DNA from: Sinorhizobium glycinis
GTDB lineage: Bacteria; Pseudomonadota; Alphaproteobacteria; Rhizobiales; Rhizobiaceae
Reading direction: 5' to 3'
Assembly: GCF_001651865.1 (NCBI RefSeq)
Contig: NZ_LPUX01000064.1
Span: 744,001 to 808,000 of the forward strand
Length of the DNA: 64,000 bases
Shown: in pieces, positions 8,310-50,439 of the stretch
How the letters are laid out: each line of letters opens with the position of its first letter
Position numbering within the stretch: position 1 is the first letter of the stretch
The notes under the pieces: generated by a model
Databases searched by the model: none
Told to the model about the DNA's origin: nothing
The model's input: only the letters and a program-made list of their open reading frames with translations
Position numbers and translations under genes: made by a program

Positions 8310-9002
8310 CTATTGCCGCTGCGACTTCACATAATCGATATAGCCGCGCACATCGGCGGCGGGTTCGGTGTAGGCGTCGCCGAGCGTCTCTTCCATCGTC
8401 GCCATATAGGTCTTCGCCCAGTCCGGCAGGGGATAATCGATCGCCGCCAGGAATTCGAGTGTTGCGGCCAGCCTAATGTCGGCGATCGACGGTCCGTCAC
8501 CTCCGATGAACGGCCTGTCGCCCATATAGAAGACGCGGAAGACCTCGAGCGGTTCGGCGAGCGCCTCCGCGGCGGCCCCACGCGCCCGTTCCTTGGTTTC
8601 GGCATCCGCGTCGCTGAAGCCGACTTCGCCCGGATATTGCGGGAAATTGAGAGCCGGGTAGGTGGCACGAGCAAGATAGGGATAGAAGGTGCCGATCAGG
8701 TAGAACATGGCGCTGTCGATCATCGCGCGCGCTTCGGGGTCTTTCGGATAGAACTGATCGAGTCCGTGCTTGTTGCAGAGATATTGCATGATCGCGCAGC
8801 TTTCCCAGAGCGCGCCCTTGGGCAGTTCCGCCGTTTCGATCATTGGCGTCAGGTGCGACGGTGCCCGCGCCAGATATTCGGCGGACCGGGTCTGTCCGTA
8901 GACGTCATGTTCGGCGAAATCGAGCTTTGCCGCCCTTAAGAATACGCGCACCGTCATGTTGTTGACGCTGGGCTTGATCACGTTGAGCTTCATCGAGACC
9001 AT
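8310..9002 (-). CDS. Glutathione S-transferase family protein
   Basis: A 230-residue cytosolic GST. The thioredoxin-like N-domain (residues about 4-85) contains SVNNMTVRVFLRAAKLDF, the cis-proline region HLTPMIET and the glutathione-anchoring ESCAIMQYL. The all-helical C-domain follows, with the N-capping motif GPSIADIRLAATLEFL near residue 180. The start at 9002 has GGGAGGA 6-10 bases upstream; the internal Met four codons later is less well placed. Candidate first-strand catalytic residues are Ser and Asn rather than Tyr, as in theta-type or beta-type enzymes. It lies with a VOC protein and a CoA ligase, which points to processing of an electrophilic or aromatic compound (inference). Confidence 0.88.
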   Translation of the reverse strand: MVSMKLNVIKPSVNNMTVRVFLRAAKLDFAEHDVYGQTRSAEYLARAPSHLTPMIETAELPKGALWESCAIMQYLCNKHGLDQFYPKDPEARAMIDSAMFYLIGTFYPYLARATYPALNFPQYPGEVGFSDADAETKERARGAAAEALAEPLEVFRVFYMGDRPFIGGDGPSIADIRLAATLEFLAAIDYPLPDWAKTYMATMEETLGDAYTEPAADVRGYIDYVKSQRQ

Positions 9003-9050
9003 CTGCCTTCCTCCCTCTGTTTCCCTAAACTTCGTCGAGCATTGCCGCGA

Positions 9051-9641
9051 TCATGACGATCCGTATGGGTCCTTTGGTGCCCGGTCAGCTGACAGCGTCG
9101 GCCGCGCGCTCTCGACCAGCGCTTCGATGGCGTCGGCGAGATGCACTTCGGCGATGGCGTAGTCGCCGCGTGCCAGCCTGATATTGTGCGCCTCCATCAG
9201 CACCTCGGCATGGCTGTGGCCGGCCGGCGGCTCGAAGCGATAGGAGGCAAGCTCGATCAGGAGCCCGAGCGGGTCCTCGAAATAGATCGAGTCCATGAAG
9301 CCGCGGTCCTTGACGCCGCTGTGCCGGATGTTGCGCTCGTCGAGGCGCTCGACCGCCTGCTGGAACGTCGCGCGCGAAACGGCGAAGGCGATGTGATGGA
9401 CGCAGCCGATATCCGTCGACGTCCGCTTCGGGTCGGGCTTGCGGTTCTCGTCGGTGAAGACGGTGATGAGCCGCCCGTCGCCGGGATCGAAATAGAGATG
9501 GCTTTCCGACGCCCTGTCGAGGTTCGGCTGTTCGAAGATGAAGGGCATGCCGAGAATGCCTTCCCAGAAGTCGATCGAAGTCTGCCGGTCGGCGCCGACC
9601 AGCGTGATGTGATGGACCCCCTGCGATTGAAGCTTCCGCAT
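9051..9641 (-). CDS. VOC-superfamily protein (glyoxalase / extradiol dioxygenase fold)
   Basis: A 196-residue protein with two paired beta-alpha-beta-beta-beta modules. Module 1 begins VHHITLVGADRQTSIDFWE (about residues 9-27) and ends with SHLYFDPGDGRLITVF. Module 2 begins CVHHIAFAVSRATFQQAV and ends with SIYFEDPLGLLIELASY. Metal ligands expected in such enzymes are present: His in the HHI of each module and Glu in LIELASY. The C-terminal 50 residues are an extension of unknown role. GGGAGGA precedes the ATG at 9641; longer upstream frames read through an RPE repeat and are not credible. Ring-cleavage dioxygenase or glyoxalase activity are both possible. Confidence 0.85.
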   Translation of the reverse strand: MRKLQSQGVHHITLVGADRQTSIDFWEGILGMPFIFEQPNLDRASESHLYFDPGDGRLITVFTDENRKPDPKRTSTDIGCVHHIAFAVSRATFQQAVERLDERNIRHSGVKDRGFMDSIYFEDPLGLLIELASYRFEPPAGHSHAEVLMEAHNIRLARGDYAIAEVHLADAIEALVESARPTLSADRAPKDPYGSS

Positions 9642-9709
9642 TGCCGTCCTCCCGATTCTTTTTCTGTCGGCGGAATACCGCTCCGCACTCATCCCGTTTC
9701 TTCTCAATC

Positions 9710-9754
9710 GCGGGATGCGAGCGGAAAACCGCTTCGCACTTTTCCTCATCCCGC
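9710..9754. repeat. Rhizobial palindromic element (RPE-like)
   Basis: A palindromic unit starting GCGGGATGCGAGCGGAAAAC and ending with TTTTCCTCATCCCGC. A close copy lies at 50440-50483, and a partial, degenerate copy (CGGCGGAATACCGC...CTCATCCCG) at 9668-9697. Such units are scattered through Sinorhizobium genomes. This copy overlaps the 3' end of the upstream ligase gene and supplies its last two codons and stop. Confidence 0.85.
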
Positions 9755-11056
9755 TTGATGCTGCACCAGTTTCGACTTGTATTCGCTGCGTTGTAGCGTT
9801 CCCCAGGGCACGATTTCGACCCGGGTGGAAACGACAAGCAGGTCGCGGATGCGTTTCTGGATCTTTTCGGCGAGTTCCGCTGTGCCTTCCTTGTCTCTGG
9901 CTAGTTCCACCAATACCGGCAAGGGAGGCTCCTGCCTCGCGCCCGCCGCCTTGGGCGTTATCAGGATGACGCCGCTGACGGCCGGCGCAAAGTCGTTCAC
10001 CACGTCGCGGATAGCCGAGGGGAAGACGTTCACGCCACGGACGATCAACAGGTCGTCCGTCCGGCCGATGCAACGCACCCGCGGCGCTGTCCGGCCGCAC
10101 CGGCAGGCCGATGTCCAGATCTCCACATGGTCCCGCGTGCGGAACCGCAGCATCGGCGCCGCCTGATGGCGAAGATGGGTGAGCACCAGCTCGCCTCGCG
10201 CTCCATCCTCGAGGGCGATCGGCGCTTCGGTATCGGGATCGATCAGCTCGGCATGGACGAAGCCGCGGGCGCCGAGATGCATGCCGCATTGTTCCTCGCA
10301 CTCGCCCCACAGCGACACACCGATATCGCCGATGCCCATGGCCTCCGTGACCTTGGCGCCCCACGCCTCCTCGAGGCGCGCCCGCATTTTCGCTTCGCCG
10401 CCACCCGGTTCGCCGGCCACAAGCAGCCGGCGGACACTGGAGGCTTTGAGGTCGAAACCGCGGTCGGTGGCCCATTCGCCGAGATAGGCGGCGTAGGACG
10501 GCGTCATCACCACCGCCGACGGCATTAACAGCCGGATGGCGGCCATCAGGCGTTCAGTGTTTCCCGTGCCGACCGGAATATGGCACATGCCCAGCCGGTC
10601 GAAGGCGCCGAGTGCTGCGCCGGCGACGAAAGGCCCGGCATTGTAGGTCGAAACGATCGCCTCGCCGCGCGCTATCCCCGAGGCCGAATAGCTCCGCGCC
10701 GATGTCGTCACCCAATTGTCGAGATCCTGTGTCGTCAGCGGAATGTAGCTCGGCGTTCCGGTCGTTCCGCTCGTGGAGTAGATGCGGACAATCCGGTCCC
10801 TCGGTGCGGCGACATGCGTGCCCATCGGCTCCGCCTCGGTGCAGCTCGCCCGGATCTCGTTCTTCTCCGTCAGGGGAAGATCGGCGATCGCATCGAGGCC
10901 GCCGACCTTTTCCGCGGTGTCGAAGCCTGCATCCAGGAGCTTGTCTCGATAGAAGCGCGAATGCGCCAACAGGTATTCGATCTGTTTCCGGTAGAGCGTA
11001 TCATCCAACCGGATCTGGTCGCGCCAGGGAAGCGTCTCGACATCGGGCTCGAACAT
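9746..11056 (-). CDS. PaaK-like AMP-forming acyl-CoA ligase
   Basis: A 436-residue adenylate-forming enzyme, the length of phenylacetate-CoA ligase (PaaK). The ATP P-loop is STSGTTGTPSYIPLT (about residue 95). The adenylation region contains TEAMGIGDIGVSLWGECEEQ, and the C-terminal hinge and lid contain GRTDDLLIVRGVNVFPSAI. A CxC pattern in ACRCGRTAPR is typical of the PaaK subgroup. It starts 2 bases after the stop of the citrate-synthase-like gene (TGA-TC-ATG), so the two are translationally coupled. The acid it activates is not evident; phenylacetate is unlikely without paa genes nearby. Its last two codons and stop are formed by an RPE repeat. Confidence 0.85.
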   Translation of the reverse strand: MFEPDVETLPWRDQIRLDDTLYRKQIEYLLAHSRFYRDKLLDAGFDTAEKVGGLDAIADLPLTEKNEIRASCTEAEPMGTHVAAPRDRIVRIYSTSGTTGTPSYIPLTTQDLDNWVTTSARSYSASGIARGEAIVSTYNAGPFVAGAALGAFDRLGMCHIPVGTGNTERLMAAIRLLMPSAVVMTPSYAAYLGEWATDRGFDLKASSVRRLLVAGEPGGGEAKMRARLEEAWGAKVTEAMGIGDIGVSLWGECEEQCGMHLGARGFVHAELIDPDTEAPIALEDGARGELVLTHLRHQAAPMLRFRTRDHVEIWTSACRCGRTAPRVRCIGRTDDLLIVRGVNVFPSAIRDVVNDFAPAVSGVILITPKAAGARQEPPLPVLVELARDKEGTAELAEKIQKRIRDLLVVSTRVEIVPWGTLQRSEYKSKLVQHQAG

Positions 11057-11058
11057 GA

Positions 11059-11850
11059 TCAGCCGCCGCCCTCGTCGTTCTGGTAGGTGACAGCCGCCTC
11101 GGCATGCGCCGCCAAGGTGAAGCCGATTGGGTTCTGCTGCTCCTCCGCCAGATGGGCGAGCAGGCCGCCGGCACGGGCCAGCAAAGGCACCGCCTTGATC
11201 ATCGCAACGGGAAAGTCGAGATCGAGCAGCACCGCAGCGATCGGCATCGAAACGTTCATGACAAGGGGCTTTCCCCAAACTTCGGCAGCCGCGTCGCGGA
11301 GGTCTCGCGCCATGCGCACATGCGGTCCGCCGACGCCGCGCGCGTCCGCGAGCTCGAGAATGCGTTCGGCGCGGGGATCGGTCGGGCGATGCACCGGATG
11401 TCCGAAGCCCGGCAGCTTGCCGCCTGCCTTGCGGATGTCCCGCAGCATGTCGACGGCGACCGCCTTCGCGTCCTCGCCGGCCGCGACGTGGGCCTGCGCC
11501 TCGGCCAGGAGCTTGCCGCACCGTTCCGACGTTCCGACCAGCACGGGACCGCAGCCGAGAAGTCCCGCAGCGAGAGCGCCCTGCAGCGAGTCAGGCTCGG
11601 CCGCAAGCGTCATTCGGGCTGCCTGGACCGTCGGCATCATGCCGTGCTCGGCGATGGCGATGAGCAGCAGGTCGAGAAAATAGCGCTGGTTGTCCGTAGG
11701 CTCCCGGCCGGTCAGCAGCAGGTAGAAATATTCCGTAAAGCTCAGCCGGCCCATGAGGTCGCGGCAGAGATCGCGGCCGCGCACCTCGACGCTCTCCGCA
11801 CTTGCCTGGCAAATGCGGGTGATCGCCTCATGAGGTTTGCCGATATGCAT
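11059..11850 (-). CDS. Citrate-synthase-fold protein (citryl-CoA lyase-like), catalytic residues changed
   Basis: A 263-residue protein related to the large domain of citrate synthase and to citryl-CoA lyases, much shorter than citrate synthase (about 430). The CoA-side His motif GFGHPVHRPTDPRAERI is well kept. Where citrate synthase has LHGGAN (first catalytic His) this protein has VLVGTSE, and where it has NVDF (catalytic Asp) this protein has NVSM. It probably does not make citrate; a C-C lyase, a hydrolase or a binding role are possible. The ATG at 11850 has GAGGG about 8 bases ahead; the upstream ATG at 11946 adds an implausible leader. First gene of the leftward cluster. Confidence 0.75.
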   Translation of the reverse strand: MHIGKPHEAITRICQASAESVEVRGRDLCRDLMGRLSFTEYFYLLLTGREPTDNQRYFLDLLLIAIAEHGMMPTVQAARMTLAAEPDSLQGALAAGLLGCGPVLVGTSERCGKLLAEAQAHVAAGEDAKAVAVDMLRDIRKAGGKLPGFGHPVHRPTDPRAERILELADARGVGGPHVRMARDLRDAAAEVWGKPLVMNVSMPIAAVLLDLDFPVAMIKAVPLLARAGGLLAHLAEEQQNPIGFTLAAHAEAAVTYQNDEGGG

Positions 11851-45847: not shown

Positions 45848-46333
45848 GACTTGCTCCCAAGCACGGAAAGCACAACACGCTCACGGCGATCCATCCTCGA
45901 TGTAGCACCACCGAGGGCGCAGCGATCATCGTTGAAGGACAGGATTTAGCCAAACACTTTTTTCACGCGGGATTGGCTTGCCATTCCGCGTCATTCGCCG
46001 AACTCGGAGATGCGTCGCCAGTCTATCATGTCGACGAGAACAGCCAGCCTCCGAGCCGGCTCGGTCAGGGCTTCGTCAAGCCAGCCGATCTGACCGCCGC
46101 TCACAGGCTCATTTGCGCCCACGTCGGCCTGATGATCCTCGGGATTGAAGGAAGCTTAGTGGAGATTGCCCAATTTCGTCGCTTTGGCGGCCTGGAAGAT
46201 TGGTCAGCCGCCGCCGGGTGGCCGCTTCCGGCTGAATTTGGTTGTGTTTTTCCAAGCCGCAACTGACAGAGACGTTGACACCGGCCCCGTTCCTTTAGCA
46301 TTTAGGGGCGGGGACTCAGCAGACACTTCATCG
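45848..46333. other. Intergenic region upstream of the FecR-TPR-barrel gene
   Basis: A 486-base stretch. The forward frame 45973-46266 resembles no known protein. The only item of note is a 43-codon minus-strand frame (separate entry). The promoter of the large gene downstream should lie in the right part, but I see neither good promoter boxes nor a good ribosome site near 46334. Confidence 0.45.
45991..46122 (-). pseudogene. Possible gene remnant or very small ORF
   Basis: A GTG-initiated 43-codon frame reading ...GGQIGWLDEALTEPARRLAV and then LVDMIDWRRISEFGE. The composition is protein-like and the end is reminiscent of helical segments in DNA-binding or transposase N-termini, but I cannot place it in a family. 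GAGGA lies 13 bases before the GTG. It may be a decayed fragment of a larger gene. Confidence 0.25.
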
Positions 46334-49300
46334 ATGCACAAGCTCAGACTAGGGGTTGCAGCACTTGTGGTGCTGGCAAGCGGGCTGCCAACTGCGGCCG
46401 AGGTACTGTCGCGCGCCGGCTTTGCCGAGGGGTCCGTCATATCCCGCAAGTCCGGCGAGGAAATCAGCTTCATTGACATCGAAGGCTGGCGCAGCGTGGA
46501 GGTCAGTCAGGACCTGCTTGCCGGCGACATTCTGCGGACCAATGCGTCCGGCAGTCTTGCACTGCTCTTTTCCGACGACACCCAGATGCGCATGGGGCGC
46601 AACACGACGCTTCTTGTCAAAAAGATTGGCGAGCACTCCGGCAGCGAGCTTGAACTCAAGGCCGGCGCCATTTGGGCACGGGCAAAGCGCGGAGGCAGTG
46701 GCCTCACCGTCGATACGCCTTCGGCTGCCGCCGCGATACGGGGAACGGACTGGACGCTCAGCGTGAGCGGCAACGGCGACACAACCCTCTCCGTCCTGGA
46801 GGGCAGCGTGGAACTCAAGAACGCCCAAGGTGCCGTGACCGTCAATCAGGGGGAGGGCGCGATTGCGGCCATTGGCCAGGCGCCGCGCAAGTACATCCTC
46901 GTCAATCTCAAGGAACGCGAGCAGATCCTGCTCTATTCGGAGCTGCGCGGTGTTTTCGCAGGTTTGCCGGCAAGCGGGCTGGGCGGCCGCGAGACTCGCG
47001 CCGAACGCGAGCGCATCCTGGCCATTGCACCGGTCCGGCGCAGCGATGAAGACTGGCTCGCGCTTGCCGAAGCGTCGCTGTCGCACGACGGCCGGGCAGC
47101 CGCCAAGGAGGCGCTGAGAGAACTGCGGCGGCCTCTGCCTGCTCGCTTGGAGGCGCGTGCCAAGCTCGTCGAGGCGATGATCGCCGGACTGGAGCGGCGC
47201 TATGGCGATGCAAGCCGGCTCTTTGCCGCCGCTCTGCCTGCGCTTCCCCGAAACCGCAGGGCATCGGCAATCTATGGCCGCTGGTTCGCCGAGACCCTGG
47301 CCCATCCCGATCGGCAAGCCCCGCCGCCGCGCGAGGGCGCCTATGCGGACGATCCTACCGCGGCATTGATGCAGGCCACGGCCGCTTCCCATGCAGTCGG
47401 GCCGGCCGAAGCGATCGAGATACTGCGAGCGGCCGAGCGCCGCTATCCCGAGGACGCACGGCTGCCGGCGATGCGCGCCGACCTCGCTTTTCAGCTCGAC
47501 CGCCGCGACGAGGTTAAGGAGGCGCTTGCCCGGGCCAAAGCGCTTGATCCGGATGAGACGGCCTATCTCCTGAGCAATGCGCGCTTCCGCGCGTCGGTAT
47601 CGAGCGACCTTGATGGCGCGCTCGCCGACCTGAAACGCGCCACGGAAGTCGCTCCGGGTGACGATGCCGTCTGGAATGAACTCGGCATCATTCAGAGTGA
47701 TCGCAACGCGATCGTCGAAGCGGATGCCGCCCATCGCCGCGCCATCGCATTGAACCCGGAAAATGCGGTCTTGTACGCCAATTATGCGCGCTTCCTGATG
47801 GACAATGATCAAATCGTGGCGGCGAAAGCGGAGATTGACAGGGCGGAGGCACTCGATCCCCATTCCTATGCGGTTCTCGCCGCCAAGGGCCGCTATCTCT
47901 TGCGGATCGGAAAAACCGAGGAAGGCGAGAAGGTGCTGCTCGAAGCCTCCGCCGTGAACCCGACCTATGGCGACAGCCTCATAGGCCTGGCGATCGGCAG
48001 CTATCAGCTGGGCGAAGAGGAAGAGACCGCCCAGGCTCTCGACAATGCGGACAGGTTTGATCCGGACAATCCCTCGATCCCACTGATCCGCTCCGGCATA
48101 GCCATTGACCAGTACCGCGCCGACGAAGCGATCGTGGAGGCTCGCGAGGCGCTGCGCCGTCGCCAGGCGCGCGGCGGCTACTACAGCGGTTACGACGCAA
48201 ACCGACAGGCCTCATCTTTTCTGGGAGTCACGCTCGCCAATATCGGACTGACCGAATGGGGCCAGTACTACGCGGATCGCTCATTCGACCCGTTCAAAGC
48301 AACGAGCTACATCGACGAGGCTGCAAGCGGACGGCTCAACCCTTTCGTGGGAGAACCGCTTTCTGGTCTGGATCGCTTCCCGTTCGGTTCAACGTCCACT
48401 TCCTTGCAGATGCAAGGCCTTCTTTTTGATCCGCTTGCCGTCGCTTCGGAGGGTAAGCGCAATTCGCTCGAAGGGCGAAGCTTTTTTGAAACCGCGATCG
48501 GAGCCGCGGTTTTCGACAGTGGTGCGGGTCCAGGCTGGGGCAGTGACGTCCTTCTTCAGGGCACGAGCTACAGTGGCATACCCTTGAGCTATTACGTACA
48601 GGGCCAAATATCGCGCCCGGAGTTCGAGCGCGAGAATGATACCGACGATTTCGACGGCGGCCTGTTTCAGCTCGGTCTTCGACCCACCCTTGCCGATAGC
48701 CTCTTCCTGTTTGGAAACAACATCCGGCAAGAGATCGGTTATCCTGGTCAAATATGGAACCCGGCTCCGTTTAACGAGGTCGGAACTCGCGACAATACAA
48801 TCGGGGGGGCATGGAGCCATACGATCTCTGACCGCAATGTCATTCAGGCCTTCGCTGTAGCGAGTGATGTCGACACTCGGCGCCAGTTCCGGGTAACAGA
48901 TTTTGACGCAGGGATAGTCTACCGGATCAACGAAAGGAACGAAGATGACGACATTGCGTACGGTGTAAGTCATCTATTCGGTATCGGCCCCCTCACCGTT
49001 CGCTACGGTGCGGAGGCGGCACACTCTCAGTTCTGGATCTCTCAGACGTCAACCAATTTGAGCTCGGGTGCCGTCGAACACCTTGGTGAGTTTTCCGGAG
49101 AAAGCAACGCGACCCGCGCCTATTTCGACGTCATGCTGGACCTGTCCCAGGATCTTCAGTTCCAGGGCGGAGCTTACGTCACTCGGTTTGACGGCGAAAG
49201 CGGGATTTGGGGCCCGGTCGACCCGCGGGTAGGCGTCGCGTGGTCTCCCATAGAGGGGCACTGGCTTCGGGCCTACTACCGGCAGGACACCCAGTTCCTA

Positions 49301-49954
49301 TCCAACCACACGCTATCGCCTGTGACAACGGTCGGCCTGGCTCCGCTTCAGCTGCCGCTCTATTCGAGCGGACAGACGCGCACGGCCGCCTTACGTTGGG
49401 ATGCGGAGTGGAACGAGCGCTTTTTTACGGCTGTCGAATACCAGCACCAGCGGTTCAATGGCCTTACGCTTGAGTACGAAGACCTGCTCTCGACCTTTAT
49501 TACGTCGGATGGTGAGATCGACCGCTTGAATATTAGTGCCAATTACTGGATCGGCAATGGCTTGGGTGTCTTCGGCTCGCTGACGTTGAACGACAGTAAA
49601 GACACCACCCCCTTTTGGAATTCCGATTTCAAGGTGCCGCTCATACCCGACTACGTGGCCCAAGTTGGCCTCAGCTATGTACATCCCTCGCGCGTGACGC
49701 TGACCATCGCCGAGACATTCGTCGGTTCTCGGGTCGGCGGGCAATACTACGACGAGGACGACGACTTCAATCCCGTAGCGGTGGGATTGGAATCGTACCG
49801 GACGACGGACGCGGCGATCACCTGGAAATCTGAGAGTGGGCACCTGGAGATTGGGGCGCAGGTGCTGAATGTCTTCGACACGGGTATAGAAATGGCCGGA
49901 GGTCTGCCGTCGCCCGGACGTACGATCCGCGCCACGATCCGGGCGCGGTTTTAG
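46334..49954 (+). CDS. FecR-domain / TPR / outer-membrane beta-barrel protein
   Basis: A 1206-residue exported protein. Residues 1-22 are a signal peptide. About 30-170 form a FecR domain (DLLAGDILRTNASGSLALLF, GAIWARAKRGGSGLTVDTPS, AAIRGTDWTLSVSG, LEGSVELKNAQG). About 345-610 hold tandem tetratricopeptide repeats (for example AIEILRAAERRYPEDARLPA, ADAAHRRAIALNPENAVLYA). About 685-1206 look like an outer-membrane barrel: many alternating aromatic strands, PRVGVAWSPIEGHWLRAYYR, and a TonB-receptor-like end VLNVFDTGIEMAGG...IRARF finishing in Phe. No plug domain is seen. TPR-plus-barrel proteins such as BcsC and PgaA export polysaccharide; a FecR front end is unusual. The barrel half is visibly less GC-rich than the rest. 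Confidence 0.8.
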   Translation: MHKLRLGVAALVVLASGLPTAAEVLSRAGFAEGSVISRKSGEEISFIDIEGWRSVEVSQDLLAGDILRTNASGSLALLFSDDTQMRMGRNTTLLVKKIGEHSGSELELKAGAIWARAKRGGSGLTVDTPSAAAAIRGTDWTLSVSGNGDTTLSVLEGSVELKNAQGAVTVNQGEGAIAAIGQAPRKYILVNLKEREQILLYSELRGVFAGLPASGLGGRETRAERERILAIAPVRRSDEDWLALAEASLSHDGRAAAKEALRELRRPLPARLEARAKLVEAMIAGLERRYGDASRLFAAALPALPRNRRASAIYGRWFAETLAHPDRQAPPPREGAYADDPTAALMQATAASHAVGPAEAIEILRAAERRYPEDARLPAMRADLAFQLDRRDEVKEALARAKALDPDETAYLLSNARFRASVSSDLDGALADLKRATEVAPGDDAVWNELGIIQSDRNAIVEADAAHRRAIALNPENAVLYANYARFLMDNDQIVAAKAEIDRAEALDPHSYAVLAAKGRYLLRIGKTEEGEKVLLEASAVNPTYGDSLIGLAIGSYQLGEEEETAQALDNADRFDPDNPSIPLIRSGIAIDQYRADEAIVEAREALRRRQARGGYYSGYDANRQASSFLGVTLANIGLTEWGQYYADRSFDPFKATSYIDEAASGRLNPFVGEPLSGLDRFPFGSTSTSLQMQGLLFDPLAVASEGKRNSLEGRSFFETAIGAAVFDSGAGPGWGSDVLLQGTSYSGIPLSYYVQGQISRPEFERENDTDDFDGGLFQLGLRPTLADSLFLFGNNIRQEIGYPGQIWNPAPFNEVGTRDNTIGGAWSHTISDRNVIQAFAVASDVDTRRQFRVTDFDAGIVYRINERNEDDDIAYGVSHLFGIGPLTVRYGAEAAHSQFWISQTSTNLSSGAVEHLGEFSGESNATRAYFDVMLDLSQDLQFQGGAYVTRFDGESGIWGPVDPRVGVAWSPIEGHWLRAYYRQDTQFLSNHTLSPVTTVGLAPLQLPLYSSGQTRTAALRWDAEWNERFFTAVEYQHQRFNGLTLEYEDLLSTFITSDGEIDRLNISANYWIGNGLGVFGSLTLNDSKDTTPFWNSDFKVPLIPDYVAQVGLSYVHPSRVTLTIAETFVGSRVGGQYYDEDDDFNPVAVGLESYRTTDAAITWKSESGHLEIGAQVLNVFDTGIEMAGGLPSPGRTIRATIRARF

Positions 49955-50059
49955 CGCCCGAGAGCAAATGTGGCCGTCAGTGAGGCTGTGAGCCGCGGCA
50001 GGGGAGTACCGAGCGGTCGGCGACTGCCCTTCGTATTAGGCTGACCGCCGTTCAGGCCG

Positions 50060-50224
50060 TTAGCCGCGGCGCACGTCCGGGAAGTTGGCCGGGTTGATGC
50101 CGAGGGTGTGGAGGTCGCGGGCGCTCGGGCGGCGGTGGCCTTCGACGGCGGCGGCGGCAGCAGTGGCGGCGCCCAGGACTGCGAAGGCGCGGCCGATGAA
50201 GCCCATGCGGTTCTTGCTAGTCAT
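50060..50224 (-). CDS. Small 54-residue protein with N-terminal hydrophobic segment
   Basis: A 54-residue frame starting MTSKNRMGFIGRAFAVLGAA, continuing as an Ala-rich hydrophobic stretch and ending in ARDLHTLGINPANFPDVRRG. The hydrophobic part could be a membrane anchor or uncleaved signal. The basic start, regular composition and polar tail with the LGINPANF motif look like a genuine small rhizobial protein, although I cannot name a family. No strong Shine-Dalgarno sequence is seen before 50224. Confidence 0.55.
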   Translation of the reverse strand: MTSKNRMGFIGRAFAVLGAATAAAAAVEGHRRPSARDLHTLGINPANFPDVRRG

Positions 50225-50324
50225 TGTCTTTGCTCACTTTCTTTCTCAATTCGATGAGCAAAAGATGGGCCTGACGGCGTTATTTTGCAATGCACAAAAC
50301 CTCACCCCAGCCATGCAGTGAAAG

Positions 50325-50357
50325 CAGGCCCGGTTGGCGATCTGCCAACCGGGCCTG
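50325..50357 (-). terminator. Strong hairpin downstream of tctA
   Basis: CAGGCCCGGTTGGC (50325-50338) pairs perfectly over 14 bases with GCCAACCGGGCCTG (50344-50357) around loop GATCT. It lies about 155 bases after the tctA stop; the minus-strand sequence after it is CTTTC, a weak U tract. A second hairpin (GATGACGAT / ATCGTCATC, 50400-50423) lies closer to tctA. Confidence 0.5.
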
Positions 50358-50439
50358 TGTTGAGCGGAGCGTGGCTGCCCCTCCTCGTCCCGCTCGTTGG
50401 ATGACGATGAAATCATCGTCATCACCTTTGAGAAGTAGC

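What the first reader, a model, noticed from the sequence alone, without database searches (positions are those of the whole stretch)
46334..49954. FecR domain, TPR array and plugless TonB-receptor-like barrel in a single 1206-residue protein
The sequence shows a signal peptide, a FecR-like domain (about 30-170), tandem TPRs (about 345-610) and a C-terminal region with outer-membrane-barrel character ending in Phe, with TonB-receptor-like final strands but no plug domain or TonB box that I can see. Known TPR-barrel proteins (BcsC, PgaA) export polysaccharides; FecR normally senses TonB-receptor occupancy for sigma-factor control. A fusion of all three suggests an undescribed surface export, assembly or sensing machine. 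The gene stands alone, with no sigma factor or synthase beside it.
Basis: partly seen in the sequence, partly recalled or inferred. Interest (0 to 1): 0.75.

Follow-up and report, generated by a model that had tools for sequence, protein, structure and literature searches.

The report
Orphan NsrA-type receptor with swapped barrels
This gene in a nitrogen-fixing root bacterium encodes a probable surface sensor related to NsrA, a known plant-signal receptor, but it lacks the signalling enzyme that its relatives are paired with, and its surface-facing half is exchanged between strains, which could change what the bacterium senses.

Summary
Window 46334-49954 (+) encodes a 1206-residue protein with a likely signal peptide, a FecR domain (66-160), a TPR array and a probable TonB-receptor-like barrel without detectable plug. 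The architecture is not undescribed: it matches NsrA, the Sinorhizobium meliloti outer-membrane receptor for plant signals that works through CHASE2 adenylate cyclases. The same genome carries the NsrA orthologue with its cyclase, just outside the window (39% identical).

Two features are new as far as I could search. First, all 53 other family genes checked have a CHASE2-domain gene directly downstream; the window gene and its 11 Sinorhizobium orthologues (12 of 33 genus genomes) have none within 50 kb, and 11 of those 12 genomes hold no extra CHASE2 gene. It is an orphan receptor. Second, the orphans carry one of two barrel cassettes, 50-56% identical to each other, spread over strains in a way that needs five exchanges by parsimony. 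Two S. terangae genomes are 96-100% identical around the gene and over its FecR/TPR half, but 57-67% over the barrel.

Best explanation: a stand-alone NsrA-type receptor that signals to existing CHASE2 cyclases in trans, with exchangeable ligand specificity. Family membership and cassette exchange are shown; location, partner and ligand are inferred.

The parts
46275..46304 (+). promoter-like pair TTGACA ... 18 nt ... CATTTA; TTGAC is invariant in the 12 orthologues, of the second box only AT
   Evidence: upstream alignment; the consensus scan found no promoter here; function inferred
46334..49954 (+). orphan NsrA-family receptor gene (subfamily A, barrel class 1), 1206 aa
46334..46399 (+). 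signal peptide, about residues 1-22
   Evidence: read by eye from the translation; no predictor run
46529..46813 (+). FecR domain, residues 66-160
   Evidence: Pfam PF04773 E 6.4e-15
47471..48163 (+). TPR array, about residues 380-610 (helical repeats probably begin near residue 200)
   Evidence: Pfam/NCBIfam; helices in the low-confidence model
48311..49951 (+). probable TonB-receptor-like barrel without plug, about residues 660-1206
   Evidence: family-level Pfam, PDB profile and weak fold matches
47984..50060 (+). exchangeable cassette: last TPR helices, barrel, stop codon and some 80-190 bp beyond (edges approximate, transferred from other strains)
   Evidence: pairwise DNA scans

Best explanation
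The protein is an orphan member of the NsrA receptor family. Its barrel sits in the outer membrane and shows loops to the outside; the TPR array and the FecR domain lie in the periplasm. By analogy with NsrA, a ligand binding the barrel changes the TPR/FecR part, which touches the periplasmic CHASE2 domain of an inner-membrane adenylate cyclase and raises cAMP, read by a Clr-type regulator. This copy has no cyclase of its own, so it most likely works in trans on the CHASE2 cyclases the cell already has (one is the NsrA-linked CyaK type; the others I take, unproven, for CyaD types). Recombination puts one of two long-diverged barrel cassettes behind a conserved FecR/TPR half, so strains change what they sense (or what can attack them) while keeping the output. 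Shown: family membership, orphan state, cassette exchange, purifying selection. Inferred: outer-membrane location, cAMP output, partner cyclase, ligand.
For: Full length 40% identical to S. meliloti 1021 pSymB and four other Sinorhizobium NsrA-type proteins, 38% to one from another family. The pSymB gene is followed, with one base of overlap, by an ORF with CHASE2 and cyclase domains. PMC7529298 (abstract and passages) and PMC13001267 (passages) describe NsrA as an outer-membrane beta-barrel needed for signalling by CyaK and CyaD1/D2. A CHASE2-domain gene lies directly downstream, 51-348 bp from the match, on the same strand: 32 of 32 Sinorhizobium NsrA genes, 20 of 20 homologues outside the genus, recounted; also in Pararhizobium sp. 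YC-54. For the 12 orphans the nearest CHASE2 gene on the contig is over 50 kb away or absent. The cyclase catalytic domain was checked in three of the linked genes. In YC-54 the only family match has a subfamily-A TPR and barrel on a FecR domain that groups with the NsrA clade (FastTree support 0.958; switch near residue 174), followed by a cyclase 65-68% identical to CyaK copies: an A-type TPR-barrel sits in a cyclase operon. Cassette exchange: identities, DNA scans, five class changes on both the N-half tree and the NsrA tree against one on the barrel tree.
Against: No direct evidence of cAMP output or of any partner. Genomes with the orphan have the same number of CHASE2 genes as those without (3; G022 has 4, G015 2), so no partner co-occurs with it. 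No Clr core motif lies at its promoter: none in the window gene's 600 bp upstream; exact hits in 6 of 12 orthologues, 279-307 bp upstream, fall inside the HAD gene by coordinates; among 14 NsrA genes 1 has one, at -72. Only 4 FecR positions separate the orphans from cyclase-linked members (1 in the control direction), which neither shows nor excludes loss of coupling. The barrel fold rests on family-level matches, not on a good model, and none of 12 full-length members hits a barrel model at E 0.01.
Confidence: 0.62

Rival explanations
1. Decoupled or decoy receptor: it binds the same class of ligands or the same cyclases as NsrA but gives no output, and so damps or tunes NsrA signalling.
For: No linked cyclase in 12 of 12 orphans; an intact NsrA frame is present in all 12 genomes; barrel nearly as acidic as NsrA's (net charge -32 for the window, -41 for S. 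meliloti NsrA).
Against: All domains, FecR included, are under purifying selection (dN/dS about 0.1) and no FecR decay is seen.
Confidence: 0.17
2. Receptor coupled to a different inner-membrane partner (other cyclase class, kinase or transporter), its FecR domain having been retuned.
For: The orphans' FecR is 68% identical to that of cyclase-linked YC-54 while their TPR core is 82% identical; tct transporter genes are neighbours in 11 of 12 other genomes with subfamily A, and a two-component pair follows in the window.
Against: tctA is present in all 33 genus genomes, 21 of which lack the orphan, so it does not depend on it. In YC-54 the FecR difference is explained as well by a mosaic gene.
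Confidence: 0.13
3. Outer-membrane exporter or uptake channel (BcsC/PgaA-like or TonB-dependent).
For: TPR plus barrel order; TonB-receptor-like last strands.
Against: No synthase beside it; PgaA and BcsC models match only the TPR part at 24.5 and 10.9 bits against cut-offs of 366.65 and 858; no Plug in 12 of 12 members; FecR domain unexplained.
Confidence: 0.05
4. The barrel dimorphism is kept by phage or bacteriocin attack rather than by ligand choice (this can be true together with a receptor role).
For: [quoted passage not shown] absence of the gene is the commonest state, 21 of 33 genomes.
Against: No evidence of any phage or bacteriocin using an NsrA-type barrel came up; I did not search for one specifically.
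Confidence: 0.3

Closest known systems
NsrA of Sinorhizobium meliloti (recalled as SMb20775; pSymB NC_003078.1 about 1567285-1570887)
   Same: Signal peptide, FecR, TPR and C-terminal barrel region in one protein of about 1200 aa; 40% identity over the full length
   Different: NsrA is followed by a CHASE2 cyclase gene; the window gene is not. NsrA pairs show milder barrel variation (0 of 63 close pairs with N-half at least 88% have a C-half under 65%, against 8 of 13 in the orphan)
Campylobacterota cluster of CHASE2 cyclase, FecR-domain outer-membrane protein and TPR protein (PMC9239204, passages)
   Same: FecR outer-membrane part with a CHASE2 cyclase as a proposed signalling unit
   Different: FecR and TPR parts are described as separate proteins there, and the cyclase is present
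FpvA pyoverdine receptor types of Pseudomonas aeruginosa (PMC2777410, passages)
   Same: Outer-membrane receptor alleles spread in mosaic fashion across strains
   Different: FpvA is a TonB-dependent siderophore receptor; here the exchanged unit is the barrel behind a FecR/TPR half
FecA/FecR/FecI (recalled)
   Same: Uses a FecR-type domain in the periplasm and a TonB-receptor barrel
   Different: No plug, no anti-sigma part, no sigma factor here; FecR is fused to the barrel protein

Membership tests
NsrA receptor family | FecR domain behind a signal peptide | tested here: met
   FecR in the window protein and 12 of 12 aligned members; signal peptide by eye only
NsrA receptor family | TPR array in the middle | tested here: met
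NsrA receptor family | C-terminal TonB-receptor-like barrel without plug, final Phe | tested here: inconclusive
   8 of 36 C-terminal halves hit PF00593, weak PDB and fold matches; window protein no hit; 0 of 12 full-length members at E 0.01; model pLDDT 44
NsrA receptor family | full-length homology and placement within the family tree | tested here: met
   40% identity to the S. meliloti copy; subfamily A is one side of a branch with 100% SH-aLRT in the 66-row tree
NsrA receptor family | CHASE2 adenylate cyclase gene directly downstream | tested here: not met
   absent at 12 of 12 orphan genes; present at 53 of 53 other family genes checked. I treat it as defining the receptor-cyclase operon, not the protein family
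NsrA receptor family | signal perception leading to cAMP | not testable with these tools
   literature on NsrA only
BcsC/PgaA exporters | match to exporter models over TPR and barrel, synthase genes nearby | tested here: not met
TonB-dependent transporters/transducers | Plug domain | tested here: not met
   no Plug in 12 of 12 members
FecR anti-sigma factors | cytoplasmic anti-sigma domain, adjacent sigma factor | tested here: not met
   no anti-sigma model and a signal-peptide-like start; no sigma factor among the eight neighbours scanned

The most novel reading that the evidence does not exclude
NsrA-type receptors are modular: FecR stays with the cyclase, while TPR-barrel halves and barrels are exchanged as cassettes. 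The window gene is a free-standing version, held at its site without a cyclase, whose two interchangeable barrel alleles let strains of one species give different external signals (perhaps different plant or competitor molecules) the same cAMP output through shared CHASE2 cyclases: a strain-variable 'front end' for symbiotic infection control.
Probability: 0.33. Interest if true: 0.75.

Novelty: new variant of a known kind. Interest (0 to 1): 0.55.

Why it matters
NsrA is, to my knowledge, one of few outer-membrane proteins reported to pass plant signals to bacterial cyclases, and I know of no account of how the signal crosses the envelope. A natural set of swapped barrels on a constant FecR/TPR half, plus a species where an A-type TPR-barrel is joined to an NsrA-type FecR and cyclase, gives ready-made chimeras to find which part binds ligand and which part talks to the cyclase. 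It also suggests that strains differ in what they sense.

Tried and rejected
Export machine (BcsC/PgaA): rejected. FecR/sigma system: rejected. Assembly fusion: rejected (12 genomes). Remnants of the gene in genomes lacking it: none in the 20 sites fetched of 21 such genomes (tblastn best E 0.37; G031 not fetched), so clean gain or loss; I cannot say which. Clr box at the promoter: none convincing. Degenerate FecR in the orphan: not seen. Orphan-specific CHASE2 gene: none, though G022 has a fourth. Agreement of orphan and NsrA divergence over 12 genomes: Spearman 0.08, which barrel exchange would explain. AlphaFold models too weak to count strands. Rfam and tRNA scans of the window: nothing at gathering scores; ar14 at 20.9 bits against a cut-off of 58.8 near 50282-50400 is taken as chance. 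Paper searches for this architecture, a second NsrA-like protein or barrel exchange in this family (I saw listings and, for some papers, passages) showed none; the library is open-access only, and the original NsrA paper (PMC5952392) and Tian 2012 (PMC3340038) are not held. That nsrA is smb20775, directly upstream of cyaK, is recalled; here it rests on the pSymB sequence, whose record has no annotation in the stretch. CyaD1/CyaD2 names for the other CHASE2 genes of this genome were not tested.
Full report
The gene. Window 46334-49954 (+) is one open frame of 1206 codons plus stop. Pfam gives FecR at 66-160 and TPR models from about 380 to 610. The last 560 residues hit no Pfam model in the window protein itself, and none of 12 full-length members shows a barrel model at E 0.01. 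But of 36 C-terminal halves (36 of 66 family rows given) 8 hit TonB_dep_Rec_b-barrel, and the 36-row profile hits OprC, BtuB and other TonB-dependent receptors in the PDB (best E 0.0083). A model of this half is weak (pLDDT 44); the 50 Foldseek matches listed, of 746, are all TonB-dependent receptors or models of them, at TM 0.27-0.41. No Plug is found in 12 of 12 full-length members. I therefore accept a plugless TonB-receptor-like barrel as likely, not proven.

What it is. A second, full-length relative lies in the same genome at G000:C64:739449-743012 (-), 39% identical, just outside the window (which starts at C64:744001). Its stop overlaps by one base the start of a gene with CHASE2 and cyclase domains. 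The same pair is on S. meliloti 1021 pSymB. The literature describes NsrA as an S. meliloti outer-membrane beta-barrel (barrel at residues 600-1200) needed for plant-signal perception through CyaK and CyaD1/D2 (PMC7529298, passages; PMC13001267, passages). The window protein is thus an NsrA-family paralogue. I call it subfamily A and NsrA subfamily B.

Distribution. Of 33 genus genomes searched (window genome included), 12 have A and 32 have B; every A genome has B. In the order sample 20 of 397 genomes, and in the class sample 2 of 385, have a family gene at E 1e-50, the window genome counted in both. In a tree of 66 rows (13 A with YC-54, 33 B, 20 others) A and B are each one side of a branch with 100% SH-aLRT (quick method; several long branches among the distant rows, root at midpoint only).

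The orphan state. CHASE2 searches place a CHASE2-domain gene directly downstream of B in 32 of 32 genomes and of the family gene in 20 of 20 genomes outside the genus; recount: gaps of 72-117 and 51-348 bp. Pararhizobium sp. YC-54 is the 53rd. Cyclase catalytic domains were confirmed only where I scanned the gene: window genome, S. meliloti 1021, YC-54. None of the 12 A genes has such a neighbour; the nearest CHASE2 gene on the contig is about 52 kb or more away, or on another contig. Genus genomes hold three CHASE2 genes each in 31 of 33; G015, which lacks B, has two, and G022 has four.

The site. A sits between a HAD hydrolase/glutamine synthetase and TctABC (families by Pfam). One search compared 17 other loci, which are 12 genomes since five were fetched twice: the tct genes are there in 11 of 12, HAD in 10, glutamine synthetase in 9; YC-54 lacks all three, and the contig of G009 is short. 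Of 21 genomes without A, 16 show both flanking genes with a gap of 0.5-1.5 kb (coordinates; HAD not found in the other five), and in the 20 sites fetched there is no trace of A.

Barrel cassettes. Among the 12 A proteins the N-half (24-640) follows strain relationship, but the C-half (660-1206) falls into two classes: class 1 (window G000, G022, G009, G016, G014, G021) and class 2 (G030, G008, G003, G032, G007, G026), 50-56% identical between and 73-91% within classes. At DNA level their flanks and first 1650 bp are 96-100% identical; from +1950 to +3600 identity is 57-67%, with a graded left edge from about +1650. The right edge lies some 80-190 bp past the stop in the three pairs scanned finely (G021/G032, G014/G026, G016/G008). 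G030/G022 shows the same in 150-bp bins. Barrel class needs five changes on the N-half tree and five on the NsrA tree (shuffled means 4.3 and 4.4, so no fit to strain history), but one on the barrel tree (FastTree, parsimony count, branch support not weighed). Control: of 63 NsrA pairs with N-half (24-600) at least 88%, none has a C-half under 65%; of 13 such A pairs, 8 do. NsrA is not free of discordance: L021/L028 are 99% and 79%. Within classes dN/dS is about 0.1 in all domains (seven pairs); in the one between-class pair tested the barrel's synonymous divergence is saturated. Both cassettes look old and functional.

FecR and the cyclase. In YC-54 the single family match is a mosaic: residues up to about 174 are NsrA-like (78-88% to B against 61-74% to A), the rest of the linker and TPR A-like, and it is followed by a cyclase 65-68% identical to CyaK copies. 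The simplest reading is that FecR is the cyclase-facing module and TPR-barrel the input module. This is inference from one natural chimera.

Mechanism. I infer ligand binding at the barrel, relay through TPR and FecR to a CHASE2 domain in trans, and cAMP as output. The window barrel is acidic (69 acidic, 37 basic residues), S. meliloti NsrA more so (82 and 41). PMC7529298 suggests an electrostatic contact of NsrA's acidic loops with basic uL2 (passage), so a related ligand class is possible; distant family members are acidic too (mean net charge -24).

Known or new. Architecture and probable role: known (NsrA). Orphan subfamily and barrel exchange: not found in the searches listed under Tried and rejected, in a library that lacks most subscription papers, including the original NsrA paper.

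Noticed in passing
window 50060-50224 (-): A 54-aa ORF (MTSKNRMGFIG...) between the receptor gene and tctA lies in an element found at 78-91% DNA identity in 30 other loci, with and without the receptor, with a 3-base conservation pattern (pattern judged by eye). Probably a real small gene; it forms the right-hand flank of the exchanged cassette.
   Followed up: partly
L035:7790-8695 (+) and 8862-11129 (-): Another CHASE2 cyclase of the same genome lies convergent to a small FecR-domain protein with a KPDNPPKPD repeat tail; it may correspond to the CyaD1/SMc02177 neighbourhood of S. meliloti (recalled, not tested).
   Followed up: partly
G015 (genus genome): The only one of 33 genus genomes without any NsrA-type gene also has one CHASE2 gene fewer, as expected if receptor and cyclase are lost together.
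   Followed up: partly
L081 (G008) and L077 (G016), receptor residues 24-290: About the first 290 codons are 97-100% identical between two strains whose NsrA proteins are 82% identical and whose orphan barrels belong to different classes: a second, N-terminal exchange tract.
   Followed up: partly
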